From Levilactobacillus angrenensis (lineage in GTDB: Bacteria; Bacillota; Bacilli; Lactobacillales; Lactobacillaceae), in NCBI RefSeq assembly GCF_003946085.1, contig NZ_RHOB01000004.1, forward strand, positions 1 through 64,000: DNA of 64,000 bases, read 5' to 3'. A model generated the notes under the pieces. It did not search any database and had not been told where the DNA came from. It saw only the letters and a program-made list of their open reading frames with translations. Position 1 is the stretch's first letter, and the number at the start of each line of letters is the position of its first letter. Positions 9,160 to 56,571 of the stretch are shown one piece after another. Made by a program: the position numbers and the translations under genes.

Positions 9160-9325
9160 TAGCCGCCTGACCGTTCACTGGAGATGATTGGGAACGTGGT
9201 GAGCGGAGTGAGTCAAAGGGCAGTCTCACAGCCTCGCTTTGAGCCGAAGGGCCGCGTCCCAGAGATGCCAGTTCTCGTAGCCATTGATTACCGCTATGCT
9301 TGCCCGACAAAGCTGACCGTCAACA
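9160..9325 (+). repeat. Intergenic structured repeat, type I copy A1 (degenerate)
   Basis: It starts with GCCGCCTGACCG and carries the type I landmarks: the short hairpin GTGAG(208-212 of this kilobase)/CTCAC(9225-9229) around a CAAAGGGCA loop, then CCTCGCTTTGAGCCGAA, then a decayed third and fourth stem. The terminal arms are not recognisable. It lies between the divergent dinG and mvk genes. Confidence 0.7.
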
Positions 9326-9329
9326 CCAA

Positions 9330-9560
9330 TTTTGCCGGAGGAGGCCAGTGATGTAGCCAGCTGTGTCGACCCAGTTAGCTGGCGTTGTTTGCCAGGTTAC
9401 TGGGTGGGGCGACTTCAGAGACACGCGCATTTGGCGTGGCTTTGAAGCGAACCGGAAGCCCGCTCTTCGGCTGGAGGTGTCCCCCATAGCAGGCGGAATC
9501 TCTGGCAGCCGCAGGCACTGGCTTGGTCAGTGTCTGGTTAGCGAACGGTCCGGCGGCCAG
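9330..9560 (+). repeat. Intergenic structured repeat, type II copy A2
   Basis: Landmarks shared with the copy at 58988: GCCAGCTGTGTCGAC, a variable hairpin (here CCCAGTTAGCTGGC opposite GCCAGGTTACTGGG), GGCGACTT, a two-part stem CTTCAGAG (9413-9420)/CTTTGAAG (9440-9447) with inner CACGC/GCGTG, then a conserved stretch beginning CGAACCGGAAGCCCG and running to CCGCAGGC. The stems differ in sequence from the other copy but still pair. Short ORFs over it are by-products of the repeat. Confidence 0.8.
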
Positions 9561-9727
9561 CAACCACACCTCTAGATTGTTTAGTCAATTATCACCGACT
9601 TTCTATAGAAAGGGTTAATTTTTGCGGGAATCCGGGATTTTAAAGGTCAAAGCTAGCGCAACGCCAATCAGTAGAGTATGATATTTTTTGGTAAGTAAAA
9701 TTCGACAAGGAAAGTGAGCGAGGAGAC

Positions 9728-13941: not shown

Positions 13942-13946
13942 GTATC

Positions 13947-14291
13947 AGTTTAACTGAAGGTTGAAAGATGAAAATCAGCTAGAAGCATTGTCACCACGCG
14001 ACTCATGGCGTAAGAATTAGTCGTTTACAGCTTCGTAGTTTGAGCTGGCCGCCTACCGTCCGCCAACTATGGGTTGGAACGCGGTGGGCGGACCGGACCG
14101 AGCCTGAGGGACGGTCTCGGCCTCGCTTTCAAGCGAACCGGAAGCCCGTTTTTCAGGCTGGAGGTGTTCCCCAGAGCAGGCGGAACCCTGGCTGACGCAG
14201 GCCCTGTTTTCACTAGTTTTGGTGGACAAAACGCGGACGATCCGGGAGTCAAGACATTAATTAAACTTTCAACCTTTAGTCAGTTTAATTA
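13947..14291 (+). repeat. Intergenic repeat, mosaic copy B with terminal inverted repeats
   Basis: The 5' flank (AGTCGTTTAC..CGTAGTTTGAGCTGGCCGCC) matches the copies at 42855 and 56299. The middle is type I (hairpin CCGAG 14098-14102/CTCGG 14116-14120), but it is joined directly to the type II 3' half (AAGCGAACCGGAAGCCCG..GCAGGC). The whole is bounded by AAGGTTGAAAG (13957-13967) and its perfect inverse CTTTCAACCTT (14266-14276). It fills the gap between the convergent fni and methyltransferase genes. Confidence 0.8.
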
Positions 14292-49310: not shown

Positions 49311-50345
49311 CTACTTCAAGGATTCCTTCAATGCCGCCATCTGGTCACCGTGTTCGGCAAAATACGTGACTAACTGGTCAGCACTCTTGCTGGCGAGCAA
49401 TTCGCGAATCTGACCGATGGTGTTCTTCACCGTTGGCGCCTTCGTGGAGCCGTGGGTCTTGACGACTGGCGCCTTCAAGCCCAACAGGACCGCCCCACCA
49501 TACTGTGAGTAATCCATCGCGCTCTGCACGTTTTTGAAGACCGGCTTTAAGAGGCCCGCCCCCAGCTTACCACCGAGGCCGCCACTCATGATTTCACCCT
49601 TGATCAGCTTCAACATGGATAGCGCCGTGCCTTCGATGGCCTTGAGCGTGGCGTTACCGGTAAAGCCGTCGGTCACGACCACGTCGGCCGCCCCGTTCAA
49701 CAGTTCCCGTGATTCCACGTTGCCGACAAAATTAATTTCGTCCATCGCAGACAAGGCGTCGTGAATGGCGCGGTGGGCCTTGTCGCCCTTGTCCGCTTCG
49801 GTCCCGTTATTCAAGAGGCCCACGCGTGGCTGGGTCACGTGCATCACCGATTGGGCGTAGTACTGGCCCATGATGGCGTACTGGACCACGTTAAACGGCT
49901 TGGTATCGGCATTGGCACCGACGTCTAACATCACGAAGCTAGACTGATCTGGCTTGCGTAAAACGGGCAGTGTCGTGGTCAATCCTGGCCGGTCGATGCC
50001 CTTGATGCGCCCGACGATCAGAAGGCCCGCAGCCAACACGGCGCCGGTATTGCCGGCAGAAAAGAAGGCGTCGGCCTGACCCTCACGCACAGCCGTGGCG
50101 GCCAATACGATACTGGATTGTTTCTTGCGACGTACGGCCCGGACTGGTTCGTCCTCCATGGCAATGACTTCCGGCGCTGAGATCAATTCGATCCGCGTGC
50201 TATCCTGCAACAGCGGTTTGACCTGTTCTTCTTGACCATAGAGTAAAAATTCCAGGTCCGGATAAGCATCCCGGGCCAATTCGATGCCCTTAACGATTTC
50301 TGCGGGGGCGTAATCGCCACCCATTGCGTCTACGGCAATTTTCAT
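49311..50345 (-). CDS. plsX: Phosphate acyltransferase PlsX
   Basis: A 344-residue enzyme converting acyl-ACP to acyl-phosphate, the entry to phosphatidic acid synthesis via PlsY. It opens MKIAVDAMGGDYAPAEIVKG and contains GAVLAAGLLIVGRIKGI and VVTDGFTGNATLKA, both typical. It is followed by acpP, its substrate carrier. An 800-bp repeat-filled gap separates it from recG upstream. Confidence 0.95.
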   Translation of the reverse strand: MKIAVDAMGGDYAPAEIVKGIELARDAYPDLEFLLYGQEEQVKPLLQDSTRIELISAPEVIAMEDEPVRAVRRKKQSSIVLAATAVREGQADAFFSAGNTGAVLAAGLLIVGRIKGIDRPGLTTTLPVLRKPDQSSFVMLDVGANADTKPFNVVQYAIMGQYYAQSVMHVTQPRVGLLNNGTEADKGDKAHRAIHDALSAMDEINFVGNVESRELLNGAADVVVTDGFTGNATLKAIEGTALSMLKLIKGEIMSGGLGGKLGAGLLKPVFKNVQSAMDYSQYGGAVLLGLKAPVVKTHGSTKAPTVKNTIGQIRELLASKSADQLVTYFAEHGDQMAALKESLK

Positions 50346-50435
50346 GAGTACCCTTCCTTTGCATCACGTCTACGTGCTCAGACGGTATTTTTTGGTTTGA
50401 TTAATTTTTTTACTTGGTTGGTGGGGTTGGGCGGA

Positions 50436-50627
50436 GCTGGCGCCTTACCGTTCGCTAAATATGAGCCGGTTCGCTGTGGGCGGACGGGGTGAGCCGAAGA
50501 GCGGTCTCACCACCTCGCCTTTGAGCCGAAGTTCACGTCTCAAAGACGCCAGTTTTCTAAGCGGCTTTACCGCTAAGAAAACTCCCACGGCTGAGTTCAT
50601 ATTTAGCGAACTCACGGCTACGTTTGT
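50436..50627 (+). repeat. Intergenic structured repeat, complete type I copy C
   Basis: Terminal arms GTTCGCTAAATATGA (50450-50464) and its perfect inverse (50597-50611) enclose three hairpins: GGTGAG (50488-50493)/CTCACC (50506-50511); CTTTGAG (50519-50525)/CTCAAAG (50539-50545); and AGTTTTCTAAGCGG (50551-50564)/CCGCTAAGAAAACT (50570-50583). Flanked by GCGCCTTACC and CACGGCTACG. Confidence 0.9.
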
Positions 50628-50745
50628 AGTTCAACCGCAGCAACGGCTAAGAAACCAACCCCTAAGATACAGCATCCTAGACGGCTTATAGCCATGAACC
50701 TAGAACGCTGACCTGACTTACCGACAACGGTTGCGAACACCCACA

Positions 50746-50822
50746 TCGGTCAGCCGAGAGTGGAGCGAAGCTAGGCTCAGCCGGGGAATTTAGTAGCGAC
50801 TTGGGCTACTAAATTGGCTTTA
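50746..50822 (-). repeat. Intergenic structured repeat, type I 3' fragment
   Basis: On the minus strand only the last hairpin, with arms at 50787-50797 and 50805-50815 (AATTTAGTAGC/GCTACTAAATT), and the CGGCTGAGCCTAG tail of a copy like the one at 55848 are present. The 5' half is missing. Confidence 0.75.
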
Positions 50823-50950
50823 TCCCCCAACAACACTTGAACGATTACAGCATAATAGCTTCATACACTACTTTCTCGGCATTATTAAAACCATCAACAC
50901 TAAATTCACCATAACAAATCGATCAGCAGTCAGCATCACCCGCCACAGGT

Positions 50951-51138
50951 AGCCGATAGTTCGACAAATATGGGTTCAGCCGTGGGAGTTCACTTAGCGG
51001 CGGGTTGTGCCGGTTAGTGAACTGGCGTCTTTGAGACGCGTTTTTCGGCTCAAAGCGAGGTGACGAGACCGTCTTTTGGCTCGTCCCGTCCGCCCACCGC
51101 GTTCCAACCCATATTTGTCGAACGGCAAGGCGGCCAGC
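50951..51138 (-). repeat. Intergenic structured repeat, complete type I copy C', inverted to C
   Basis: Terminal arms GTTCGACAAATATGGGTT (50959-50976 on the plus strand) and AACCCATATTTGTCGAAC (51106-51123) are a perfect 18-bp inverse pair. Inside, in minus order: GACGAG/CTCGTC (ends at 51062 and 51085), CTTTGAG/CTCAAAG (51029-51055) and AGTTCACT/AGTGAACT (50987-51023). It faces copy C head to head across 340 bp. Confidence 0.9.
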
Positions 51139-51147
51139 ATCCACTAA

Positions 51148-53181
51148 CTAGTCCATGGTCGTGTTCTGATGGGCAGTGGTGCTGAGGAAGGCGGCGAGAG
51201 CCAGGTTGGCGTCCTTGTCTGCCCAATCCGGCGCAGCCACCGTCTCCTTAGCGGCCTGCTGGGCGGCACTCAAGATGTTCAAGTCCGCCACGGGGTCGCC
51301 CACTTTGAAGTCCGGCACCCCAGACTGCTTTCTCCCTAGAATATCACCTGGGCCCCGCAATTCCAAATCCTTTTGCGATAAGACGAAGCCGTCGTTGGTG
51401 CTGGTCATGGTCGTCATGCGCTCCACGGCCAGTTGATTTTTAGGGTCCGCAATCAAAATGCAAGCCGAGGCCCGCGTTCCCCGACCGACCCGACCGCGTA
51501 ACTGGTGCAATTGGGCCAAGCCGAAGTGGTCGGCATCATAGATCATCATCAACGTCGCGTTGGGCACGTCAACGCCGACTTCAATCACGGTCGTGGCGAC
51601 CAGCACTTGAAATTCATTGGCCTTGAACGCCGTCATGATGGCATTTTTCTCGTCATCTTTCATCCGTCCGTGCAGCAGGCCCACCTTATACTCGGGCTCA
51701 AATTCTTCTTTGAACCGGGTGTAAATGGCCTCGGCATTTTTCATGTCCACCGCCTCCGACTCTTCAATCAAAGGCGTGACCACGTAGGCTTGTGACCCGG
51801 TGCTCAGCTCTGCCTTGACCTGGCGAAGGGTGGCATCGACTTGATTACTGCGAATCCAAGTGGTCTTGATGGGTTGCCGGCCGGCCGGTAATTCGTTGAT
51901 GACTGACACGTCCATTTCGCCGTACGCCGTGATGGCTAACGTCCGCGGAATGGGCGTGGCCGTCATAGCCAAGACGTCGGGCTGTTGGCCCTTTTCGCGC
52001 AAGGCTTGGCGTTGGTTGACCCCGAAACGGTGTTGCTCATCAATCACGGCCAAGCCGAGTCGATGATAGCTCACTTCCGGTTGGATCAGAGCGTGCGTCC
52101 CAATCAAGAGGTCGACGCCGCCCTTAGCAATCTGCGGCAACAAGGTTTTCCGGGCGCTGGCCTTGGTGGCACCGGTCAATAACGCCACGTTGACCGGAAA
52201 GTCGGCAAACAGCTTAGCCAAATTGTTGGCGTGTTGTTCGGCCAAGATTTCCGTCGGCGCCATCAAAGCGGCCTGGGCCCCCGCAGTAATCGCAGCGTAC
52301 ATGGCAATGGCGGCGACCACGGTCTTCCCACTACCCACGTCTCCTTGTAACAGACGATTCATGTGGACCGGCCGTTTCAAATCAAAGCAGATCTCGTTGA
52401 CGACCTTCTTTTGCGCGCCGGTCAATTCATACGGTAGCGAATCAATGAAGGCCTTAAGTTTGGGCAAATCGTAGTGCAGTGCCTGCCCGTGTAGGGTGTG
52501 GTCCTGTTGGCGCACGATTTGTAACCGCAGCTCAAATAAATAGAATTCCTCAAATTTTGCCGTTCGCCGCGCTGCTTGCGCTGCCGCCCCGTCCGCCGGA
52601 AAATGCATATCGTGAATCATTTGCTTGCGGTGTAACAAGCGGTACTGTTCACGTAAGGGCTCCGGAATCAGGTCAACGATGACGGATTCGTAGGCGTCAT
52701 AAGCTGATGTCACCAATTTTTGAATCGTGCCCTGCCGAATCTCCTTGTTGGCGGGGTAAATGGACCCCATGCCGCTGTCAGCGCTGGCCAAGATTTTCAT
52801 CCCCGCCAGCGACTGGCGTTTGGCGTCAAAGCGACCGTAGACCACGATATCATTGCCAACTTCCAGCTTGTCCTTCAACCAAGGTTGATTAAAAAAGGTC
52901 ACCGGAATCACGGTGTGTTCGTCCAGCAATAGCCGAAAGTTCAGCCGATTCTTCTTGCGACCGAACCGCGTCAACACGGGGGCTCCCGCCACGGTACCTT
53001 TGAGCGTGACCTTGGCTTGGTCGGTCAACTCCGCGGGGTCTTTGGCCTGCAGGTCCTCGTAACGGAAGGGAAAGTACGTCAAAAGGTCATTGATATTTTC
53101 AATCTCCAGACTGTTGAGCGCCTGAACCCGTTTGGGACCGACCCCGGCTAATGCCGCCACGCTATCACTTAAACTTGTCAT
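51148..53181 (-). CDS. recG: ATP-dependent DNA helicase RecG
   Basis: A 677-residue branch-migration helicase that rewinds stalled forks. N-terminal wedge/OB domain (about 60-150), Walker A in LLQGDVGSGKTVVA near residue 280, DEQHRFG box near 385, MTATPIPRTLA and the late QLRGRVGRG motif. It follows fakA after a terminator, the standard asp23-fakA-recG order. Confidence 0.95.
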   Translation of the reverse strand: MTSLSDSVAALAGVGPKRVQALNSLEIENINDLLTYFPFRYEDLQAKDPAELTDQAKVTLKGTVAGAPVLTRFGRKKNRLNFRLLLDEHTVIPVTFFNQPWLKDKLEVGNDIVVYGRFDAKRQSLAGMKILASADSGMGSIYPANKEIRQGTIQKLVTSAYDAYESVIVDLIPEPLREQYRLLHRKQMIHDMHFPADGAAAQAARRTAKFEEFYLFELRLQIVRQQDHTLHGQALHYDLPKLKAFIDSLPYELTGAQKKVVNEICFDLKRPVHMNRLLQGDVGSGKTVVAAIAMYAAITAGAQAALMAPTEILAEQHANNLAKLFADFPVNVALLTGATKASARKTLLPQIAKGGVDLLIGTHALIQPEVSYHRLGLAVIDEQHRFGVNQRQALREKGQQPDVLAMTATPIPRTLAITAYGEMDVSVINELPAGRQPIKTTWIRSNQVDATLRQVKAELSTGSQAYVVTPLIEESEAVDMKNAEAIYTRFKEEFEPEYKVGLLHGRMKDDEKNAIMTAFKANEFQVLVATTVIEVGVDVPNATLMMIYDADHFGLAQLHQLRGRVGRGTRASACILIADPKNQLAVERMTTMTSTNDGFVLSQKDLELRGPGDILGRKQSGVPDFKVGDPVADLNILSAAQQAAKETVAAPDWADKDANLALAAFLSTTAHQNTTMD

Positions 53182-55816: not shown

Positions 55817-55847
55817 ATTGTCCAAAATTCAAATAACGTGTCCTAGT

Positions 55848-56025
55848 CGCCTTACCGTTACGTGAAAGTCTAGGCTGGAACGCTGGGGCAGGACGGCCCG
55901 AGCCAAAGCCCGGTCTCGGACCTTGCTTTGAGCCGAAAACCACGTCTCAAAGTCACCAATTTAGTAGCCAAGAGCGCTACTAAATTCCTCGGCTGAGCCT
56001 AGATTTCACTTCACTCACGGCTGAC
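55848..56025 (+). repeat. Intergenic structured repeat, complete type I copy D
   Basis: Terminal arms GTGAAAGTCTAGGCT (55862-55876) and AGCCTAGATTTCAC (55996-56009) pair with one bulge. Inside: CCGAG (55898-55902)/CTCGG (55915-55919), CTTTGAG/CTCAAAG (55926-55952) and AATTTAGTAGC/GCTACTAAATT (55958-55986), the last a perfect 11-bp stem unrelated in sequence to the same stem in copies C and C'. Confidence 0.9.
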
Positions 56026-56298: not shown

Positions 56299-56571
56299 GA
56301 ATCAGTCGTTTACCGATTCGTAGCGGTAGCCGATCGCCTACCGTTCGCTAAATACGGGTGGCATGCGGTGGGCGGCTCGGACCTGAAGAACAGTCTCGGC
56401 CTCGCTTTGAGCCGAAGGTCGCGTCTCAAGCCGGTCTCGTAGCCAAAACATGCGCCAATAATCGTCGACTTAGTACTTAGCTATCAGCTAACACAATGTT
56501 GCTGATAAGCATCAACTTGCCGCAAACTCCTGGCTTCACTAATTTTAGTTAACAGAATACTGTCATTCCTG
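56299..56571 (+). repeat. Intergenic structured repeat, copy E, partly degenerate
   Basis: The 5' flank ATCAGTCGTTTACCG..CGTAG matches copies at 13947 and 42855; the core has type I landmarks (CCGTTCGCTAAATACGGG, GTGGGCGG, CTCGCTTTGAGCCGAAGG). The 3' tail CTAATTTTAGTTAACAGAAT resembles the tail of the type II copy at 58988. The inner 3' hairpins are lost. Confidence 0.75.

What the first reader, a model, noticed from the sequence alone, without database searches (positions are those of the whole stretch)
50436..51138. Type I intergenic repeats keep their hairpins while both stem arms change sequence
Complete copies at 50436 (+), 50951 (-) and 55848 (+) share one layout: terminal pairing arms, a short hairpin, the CTTTGAG/CTCAAAG hairpin, then a longer hairpin. 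The terminal arms (GTTCGCTAAATATGA, GTTCGACAAATATGGGTT, GTGAAAGTCTAGGCT) differ, yet each pairs with its own inverse 120-150 bases away. The last hairpin stem is AGTTTTCT, AGTTCACT or AATTTAGTAGC, each matched by its partner, and the short hairpin is GGTGAG/CTCACC, GACGAG/CTCGTC or CCGAG/CTCGG. Coordinated change of both arms in several stems points to selection on the fold (RNA or cruciform DNA), as in BOX-like or small non-autonomous elements. I know of no described family that fits.
Basis: partly seen in the sequence, partly recalled or inferred. Interest (0 to 1): 0.88.

Follow-up and report, generated by a model that had tools for sequence, protein, structure and literature searches.

The report
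Hairpin DNA repeats in lactic-acid bacteria
A short stretch of non-coding DNA, copied well over a hundred times around the chromosomes of some lactic-acid bacteria, keeps the same folded shape although the letters of its stems keep changing in matched pairs, and the pattern of changes looks more like a constraint on folded DNA than on RNA.

Summary
The three window copies belong to a family with about 150 copies scored (the cap) in this Levilactobacillus genome and again in L. brevis CD0817. It occurs in 32 of 35 genus genomes and 11 of 40 sampled genera of the family. No Rfam match, and no plasmid or phage match to the queries tried.

Layout: conserved ends, variable terminal stem P1, short stem P2, three hairpins; H1 and H2 share a bulged T. 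Covariation is overwhelming (876 double-change cells, shuffles 232 sd 12) and occurs in place: seven same-locus pairs between species hold 12 compensated pairs (about 0.5 expected).

Pairs are almost purely Watson-Crick. G.T is no commoner than A.C (tRNA control 31:3) and does not follow the transcribed strand, so RNA folding is disfavoured, not excluded. Blind arm-to-arm copying is disfavoured by the invariant bulged T.

Copies are modular and mobile: in the young subfamily the core sits in a MITE of up to ~640 bp with 14-bp terminal repeats and 6-9-bp target duplications (25 of 35; shuffled mean 1.4). Interval 50436-51138 is a 703-bp unit of two head-to-head copies. The trans-acting factor is unknown; no IS200-type transposase was found in this genome.

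The parts
50436..51138 (.). 703-bp unit: two Type I copies head to head, bounded by inverted ends GCTGGCGCCTTACCG / CGGCAAGGCGGCCAGC
50440..50620 (+). Type I core, copy 1 (190.2 bits, highest score in the own-genome list)
50450..50464 (+). P1 5' arm of copy 1
50597..50611 (+). P1 3' arm of copy 1
50476..50480 (+). P2 5' arm (GTGGG)
50584..50588 (+). P2 3' arm (CCCAC)
50488..50511 (+). hairpin H1 (GGTGAG/CTCACC), bulged T at 50505
50519..50545 (+). hairpin H2 (CTTTGAG/CTCAAAG), bulged T at 50538
50551..50583 (+). hairpin H3 (AGTTTTCT/AGAAAACT)
50950..51133 (-). Type I core, copy 2 (187.9 bits)
55847..56023 (+). Type I core, copy 3 (162.3 bits; GTTACGTGAAAGTCTAGGCT subfamily)
9163..9344 (+). degenerate Type I copy (59.6 bits) followed by a Type II module; inverted end at about 9543-9561
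13954..14279 (+). 326-bp MITE with 14-bp terminal repeats (CTGAAGGTTGAAAG), deleted Type I core inside (14048-14205), 9-bp duplication TCAGTTTAA at 13945-13953 and 14280-14288
56333..56490 (+). degenerate Type I copy (48.9 bits)

Best explanation
A family of small, modular, non-autonomous chromosomal repeats (MITE- and BIME-like in behaviour) whose ~180-nt core works as folded DNA: a cruciform, or hairpins on single-stranded DNA, with a variable base stem (P1), a short P2 and three hairpins, two of which carry an identical bulged T. Proposed working: when the DNA is negatively supercoiled or single-stranded the core extrudes, and a trans-acting protein reads its shape plus a few fixed letters (the bulged-T motif GAGCC..GGTCTC, the linkers, the ends). 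Stem sequence is therefore free to drift as long as both arms still match in Watson-Crick fashion. Shown: the family, the fold's covariation, covariation in place after insertion, the absence of wobble preference, transposon-type insertion of the long form. Inferred: that extrusion happens in the cell and that a protein reads it. Not known: which protein, and whether the result is transposition, recombination or a chromosome or gene-boundary function.
For: Covariation: 149 copies from 98 loci of named Levilactobacillus, Lactiplantibacillus and one 'Lactobacillus sp.', 96.6% of cells paired, 876 double-change cells vs 232 sd 12 shuffled, slid controls 37-50% paired; 28 copies from 19 genomes of eight other genera, 95.4% paired, 272 vs 69 sd 7. 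In place: 12 double Watson-Crick changes in 7 same-locus pairs, about 0.5 expected if sites changed independently (my arithmetic); core 80-93% identical where the sequence to its right is 37-53% (5 of 5 pairs). No wobble: own copies G.T 102, A.C 107; other species 63 vs 113; tree events 49 vs 89; mismatches inside G.U-free folds 154 vs 177 over 303 copies; tRNA control 31 vs 3; rare mismatches in copies between two + genes G.T 8, A.C 11 and between two - genes 15, 18. Bulged T: 125 of 125 own copies in both hairpins, 34 of 34 across species, and in the 149-row set T in 144 (5 gaps) for H1 and 145 (4 gaps) for H2. Mobility: 35 of 125 own copies with both terminal repeats, 25 of 35 with a flanking duplication of 6-9 nt (shuffled mean 1.4, largest 4 in 200); own-only insertions relative to L. 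brevis.
Against: Nothing shows extrusion in cells. A.C exceeds G.T in most counts (89:49 tree events), driven by H1 (34:4), where the alignment is gappy; A.C on this strand is G.U on the other, and co-directional neighbours lean to the minus strand (60 vs 44 over three overlapping sets), so a minus-strand RNA is not excluded. No target duplication was found at the short TIR-bounded units. No partner enzyme was found: no autonomous element with the same ends, no IS200-type transposase in this genome. A strict search for excision stumps found none. Stem sites change only 1.7 times more slowly than unpaired sites in same-locus pairs (6.6% vs 11.3%), and the left flank is not always more diverged than the core (53-97%).
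Confidence: 0.5

Rival explanations
1. A structured RNA: copies are transcribed (3' UTR, leader or small RNA) and the RNA fold is selected, perhaps on the minus strand. A both-strand form (bidirectional terminator or stabiliser) would also disfavour wobble pairs.
For: Very stable predicted folds on both strands; A-rich hairpin loops; copies are intergenic and commoner between convergent than divergent genes (own 24 vs 6, other loci 22 vs 11, L. brevis region 2 vs 1); T-runs enriched 20-50 nt upstream of the left end; A.C over G.T (89:49 events) would be G.U over A.C on the minus strand, and co-directional neighbours lean to minus (own 29 vs 20, other loci 22 vs 22, L. brevis region 9 vs 2).
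Against: Outside H1 the events are 55 A.C to 45 G.T, against 31:3 for wobble in tRNAs; no turn of the ratio with gene direction: rare cells 8:11 and 15:18, all cells 19:32 and 24:50; transversion-type pair swaps (140) nearly as common as transition-type ones (155); no Rfam match.
Confidence: 0.2
2. Mutational concerted change: template switching between the arms of a quasi-palindrome copies mutations from one arm to the other, so covariation arises without selection on the fold.
For: It predicts Watson-Crick-only pairs, no strand bias, frequent transversion swaps and change in place, all seen.
Against: The bulged T would be erased but is kept in 125 of 125 own copies in both hairpins; stems change more slowly than unpaired sites and the core more slowly than the sequence to its right, whereas copying alone does not slow change; linkers and hairpin feet are conserved.
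Confidence: 0.2
3. Structure constrained only during spread: an active master element must fold to be mobilised, and resident copies drift.
For: Subfamilies share arms within a genome and differ between species; the long form has transposon hallmarks.
Against: Copies at the same locus in two species show compensated changes and slow change.
Confidence: 0.1

Closest known systems
BOX elements of Streptococcus pneumoniae (PMC3049150, passages read)
   Same: High-copy modular intergenic repeats with extensive secondary structure; over-represented between convergent genes; slow current movement.
   Different: No direct alignment to BOX was made, so sequence relation is untested. The passages I read report RNA expression, and the word 'compensatory' does not occur in that text. 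Here pairing is almost purely Watson-Crick.
REP / BIME / REPIN repeats (recalled)
   Same: Extragenic palindromes in >100 copies, sometimes in inverted pairs (of 7 neighbouring pairs within 700 bp among the 150 listed L. brevis copies, 5 are + then -, 2 are + +, none - +).
   Different: Core is ~180 nt with three hairpins; no dependence on a Y1 (RAYT-type) transposase.
MITEs (review PMC10969869, passages read)
   Same: Long form has terminal inverted repeats, 6-9-bp target duplications and no conserved reading frame through the core.
   Different: Contains a separately conserved folded core that is also found without those ends and in other genera; no source IS found.
IS200/IS605 hairpin ends and their non-autonomous derivatives (recalled)
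   Same: Hairpins with an unpaired T read as single-stranded DNA (recalled, not tested here).
   Different: No Y1 transposase match in the own genome; presence of the gene across the genus does not follow copy number.

Membership tests
MITE (long form only) | terminal inverted repeats | tested here: met
   35 of 125 own copies have both CTRAAGGTTGAAAG-like ends within 3 mismatches; exact end 83 sites vs 0 for the reversed pattern
MITE (long form only) | target-site duplication | tested here: met
   25 of 35 have a repeat of 6-9 nt at the ends, 21 of 35 of 7-9 nt; re-paired flanks give mean 1.4 and at most 4 in 200 shuffles
MITE (long form only) | autonomous IS with the same ends | tested here: not met
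   exact ends only, own genome; the one inward pair a few kb apart (C61:64627 and 68532) is not one element, because the first end is closed by its own partner 470 bp away
MITE (short GCTGGCCGCC-bounded units) | terminal inverted repeats | tested here: met
   inverted end downstream in 57 of 288 copies, reversed control 1 of 288; 74 exact ends vs 0 in L. brevis
MITE (short GCTGGCCGCC-bounded units) | target-site duplication | tested here: not met
   longest shared flank strings no longer than shuffled pairings in 49 units; ends may lie ~25 nt further out, where it was not retested
REP/RAYT system | Y1 transposase in the same genome | tested here: not met
   PF01797: 0 matches in the own genome (draft, 62 contigs); 23 of 35 genus genomes positive without evident relation to copy number
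Structured RNA family (Rfam) | match to a curated family | tested here: not met
   0 matches: window at gathering scores, 50400-51170 at E<=1
Structured RNA | G.U wobble tolerated over A.C | tested here: not met
   on the plus strand; tRNA control; a weak excess exists for the minus strand
Structured RNA | transcript present | not testable with these tools
   no expression data
BOX element | boxA/boxB/boxC sequence modules | not tested
   no BOX sequence was aligned

The most novel reading that the evidence does not exclude
A chromosomal element spread over many genera of Lactobacillaceae that acts as folded DNA in place: a cruciform or single-stranded landmark, kept by selection for Watson-Crick matching in freely drifting stems and read by shape (bulged-T hairpins) by an unknown conserved host protein. 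If so, covariation analysis of bacterial repeats can report DNA folds, and the G.T to A.C ratio separates them from RNA.
Probability: 0.3. Interest if true: 0.85.

Novelty: new variant of a known kind. Interest (0 to 1): 0.66.

Why it matters
The family adds a hundred or more structured elements to several food-bacterium genomes, and the listings of ten full-text searches showed no paper describing it in the open-licence library; subscription journals were not covered. It gives a natural experiment with a hundred or more replicate folds per genome for asking whether cruciforms or ssDNA hairpins are under selection in chromosomes, and a simple sequence test (G.T versus A.C) that separates DNA-level from RNA-level constraint. 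It also warns that strong covariation alone does not prove a structured RNA.

Tried and rejected
IS200/RAYT transposase as partner: suggested by the bulged-T hairpins, rejected for this genome because no match was found while copies abound; genomes G011 and G024 have the gene and no copies at E<=1e-10. Plasmid or phage carriage: no match for the window core in 72,556 plasmid and 50,697 phage records, nor for one 634-bp long copy in plasmids. Replication-strand preference: 82 vs 68 of the 150 listed L. brevis copies, p=0.29, replichore boundary assumed. Protein coding: at most 38 of 130 own copies have any one frame open through the core. Excision stumps: seemed visible at a few loci, but a strict pattern found none, so not used. 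Hypervariability: the element at 50440 looked fast-changing beside an apparently identical coding flank, but the block around it is ~88% identical to L. brevis, so it is not. The A.C excess in H1 is at least partly register shift in a gappy stem. Autonomous relative of the long form. Papers: passages of PMC2267715, PMC3049150 and PMC10969869; others only as search listings. Taxonomy look-up, protein-family scans and structure prediction were not used.

One search used 145 of 149 rows (4 short ones dropped). The 303-copy set includes five weaker own copies and one L. brevis copy twice (L050 and the fetched region). One search listed 27 flank pairs; I judged 8 by eye to be the same element at the same locus and used 7; the others were neighbours in one locus, one duplicate, or different subfamilies at one locus. 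The context test excluded P2; one search includes it (without it G.T 59, A.C 100). One search's motif search required a slot for the bulge (268 and 255 of 303 copies matched), so the bulge claim rests on alignment columns instead. The tRNA control is small (25) and the tRNA finder itself expects wobble pairs.

Full report
OBSERVATION. The finding's own interval, 50436-51138, is one 703-bp unit: two cores head to head, bounded by the same end in inverted orientation. It lies between two minus-strand reading frames, 51148-53181 and 49311-50345, which I take to be recG and plsX; these names are recalled and were not tested by a family search. In four more distant relatives whose sequence I printed (L242, L245, L246, L250) the two genes are almost adjacent.

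FAMILY. BLAST gave 41 matches in the own genome with 40 of 163 candidates scored. A covariance model from 34 copies (R1) gave 150 of 150 scored candidates at E<=0.001, of 1017 first-look candidates; one place is counted on both strands, and 132 score 115 bits or more. The three weaker window copies are not in that list, so the list is not complete. In G030 all 150 scored candidates of 1155 reached 145 bits and lie on its main contig; that contig has the length of L. brevis CD0817 CP032931.1. In the genus 32 of 35 genomes have matches at E<=1e-10; over the family 55 of 251 sampled genomes in 11 of 40 genera, own genus included, at E<=1e-8 with stricter filters. Rfam gave nothing; plasmids and phages gave nothing for the queries tried.

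ANATOMY. From 34 aligned copies: CGCCTTACCG, P1 5' arm, a conserved linker GGAACGC, P2, hairpin H1, CCTCG, hairpin H2, ACGCCA, hairpin H3, P2 3' arm, CTGA, P1 3' arm, CTCACGGCTA. H1 and H2 share a loop-proximal stem GAGCC..GGTCTC with one unpaired T on the 3' side. In alignment columns that T is present in 125 of 125 own copies in both hairpins, in 34 of 34 copies across species, and in the 149-row set in 144 (5 gaps) and 145 (4 gaps); in other genera H1 has it in 23 of 28 (5 gaps). H2 is conserved in most copies but in one subfamily it too changes in matched fashion (for example CTTGGAG/CTCCAAG). Twenty stretches from 19 genomes of eight other genera keep P1, H1 and H3 as far as folds show; those of about 155 nt appear to lack H2. 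Their P1 arms are mostly quite different sequences, still matched.

COVARIATION. On 149 copies from 98 loci of other genomes: 96.6% of cells paired, 876 double-change cells against 232 sd 12 in shuffles, partner-slid controls 37-50% paired. On 28 copies from other genera: 95.4%, 272 against 69 sd 7. Because related copies inflate such counts and model-fitted alignments lean to their structure, I also compared the same element at the same locus in two species, with helices from wobble-free single-sequence folds. Seven pairs gave 342 unchanged pairs and 36 changed: 12 Watson-Crick double changes, 8 single differences to A.C, 5 to G.T, 7 to other mismatches, 4 others. With 50 of 755 paired sites changed, independence predicts about 1.7 double changes and 0.5 Watson-Crick ones (my arithmetic). 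Examples in the window copy at 50440: G-C against A-T in P1 and T-A against C-G in H1 of L. brevis.

DNA OR RNA. An RNA fold tolerates G.U but not A.C; a DNA fold formed by both strands, or by either, gains nothing from the distinction. Own copies: G.T 102, A.C 107 (without P2: 59 and 100). Other species: 63 and 113. Changes on a tree of 145 copies: 49 to G.T, 89 to A.C, 295 Watson-Crick to Watson-Crick (155 transition-type, 140 transversion-type). Single mismatches inside wobble-free folds of 303 copies: 154 and 177. Control, 25 distinct tRNAs from the fetched loci: 31 and 3, a small control from a program that expects wobble. If RNA of whichever strand is co-transcribed mattered, the ratio should turn with gene direction; rare mismatches give 8:11 between two + genes and 15:18 between two - genes, all mismatches 19:32 and 24:50. 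The A.C excess is G.U on the minus strand: it is carried by H1 (34:4 events), where registers shift, and is 55:45 elsewhere. Co-directional neighbours lean to minus (own 29 vs 20, other loci 22 vs 22, L. brevis region 9 vs 2). So a minus-strand RNA is disfavoured but not excluded.

SELECTION OR COPYING. Template switching between arms would also give Watson-Crick-only covariation. Against it as the whole story: the bulged T survives; in same-locus pairs stems change in 50 of 755 sites and unpaired sites in 57 of 506; the core is 80-93% identical where the 31-150 nt to its right are 37-53% (5 of 5 pairs; left flanks range 53-97%). The stem-loop contrast is modest, so a mixed model remains possible.

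MOBILITY. In 35 of 125 own copies the core sits in a longer element (355-644 bp, most near 640) with both CTRAAGGTTGAAAG-type ends, and 25 of these have a 6-9-nt duplication, against a mean of 1.4 and at most 4 when flanks are re-paired. The window has a deleted member at 13954-14279 with a 9-bp duplication. Other copies belong to units whose far end is the left end inverted, 57 of 288 against 1 in the control; no duplication was found there, and weak conservation extends about 25 nt further out. Own and L. brevis regions (about 80-98% DNA identity per block) share some copies and differ in others. Copies are commoner between convergent than divergent genes (own 24 vs 6), and T-runs are enriched 20-50 nt upstream of the left end, as for insertions tolerated behind terminators. 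The partner enzyme is unknown; no Y1 transposase match here.

VERDICT. Real, high-copy, strongly covarying in place, with a DNA-like rather than RNA-like pairing signature. As a kind it stands beside BOX, REP/BIME and MITE repeats; only the long form meets tested MITE features. What is unusual is the combination of freely drifting stems, fixed bulged-T hairpins and the absence of wobble preference across a bacterial family.

Noticed in passing
window 9345-9540; L012, L013, L018: A second (Type II) module, GGAGGCAGCCAG..GGTGGAGCCAGCTGTG..GCAGCCGCAGGCAC, recurs beside or inside Type I units; it also looks palindromic and is missing from some long copies.
   Followed up: partly
window 13954-14279: 326-bp MITE with CTGAAGGTTGAAAG ends and a perfect 9-bp target duplication, apparently an internal deletion of the long element.
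   Followed up: yes
G030 main contig: Among the 150 listed copies, neighbours within 700 bp are + then - (5) or + + (2), never - then +.
   Followed up: partly
left flanks of 257 copies without the long-form end: TTTTT runs are two to four times more frequent 20-50 nt upstream of the left end than further out, suggesting insertion just behind intrinsic terminators.
   Followed up: partly
L020 (own C10:13618-13841): A copy with a ~37-nt internal tandem duplication of the P1/H1 region.
   Followed up: no
window 50751-50852: Apparent remnant of the third subfamily (AATTTAGTAGC hairpin; only 12.9 bits) lies between the two head-to-head copies; L. brevis has two copies of that subfamily in the corresponding gap.
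   Followed up: partly
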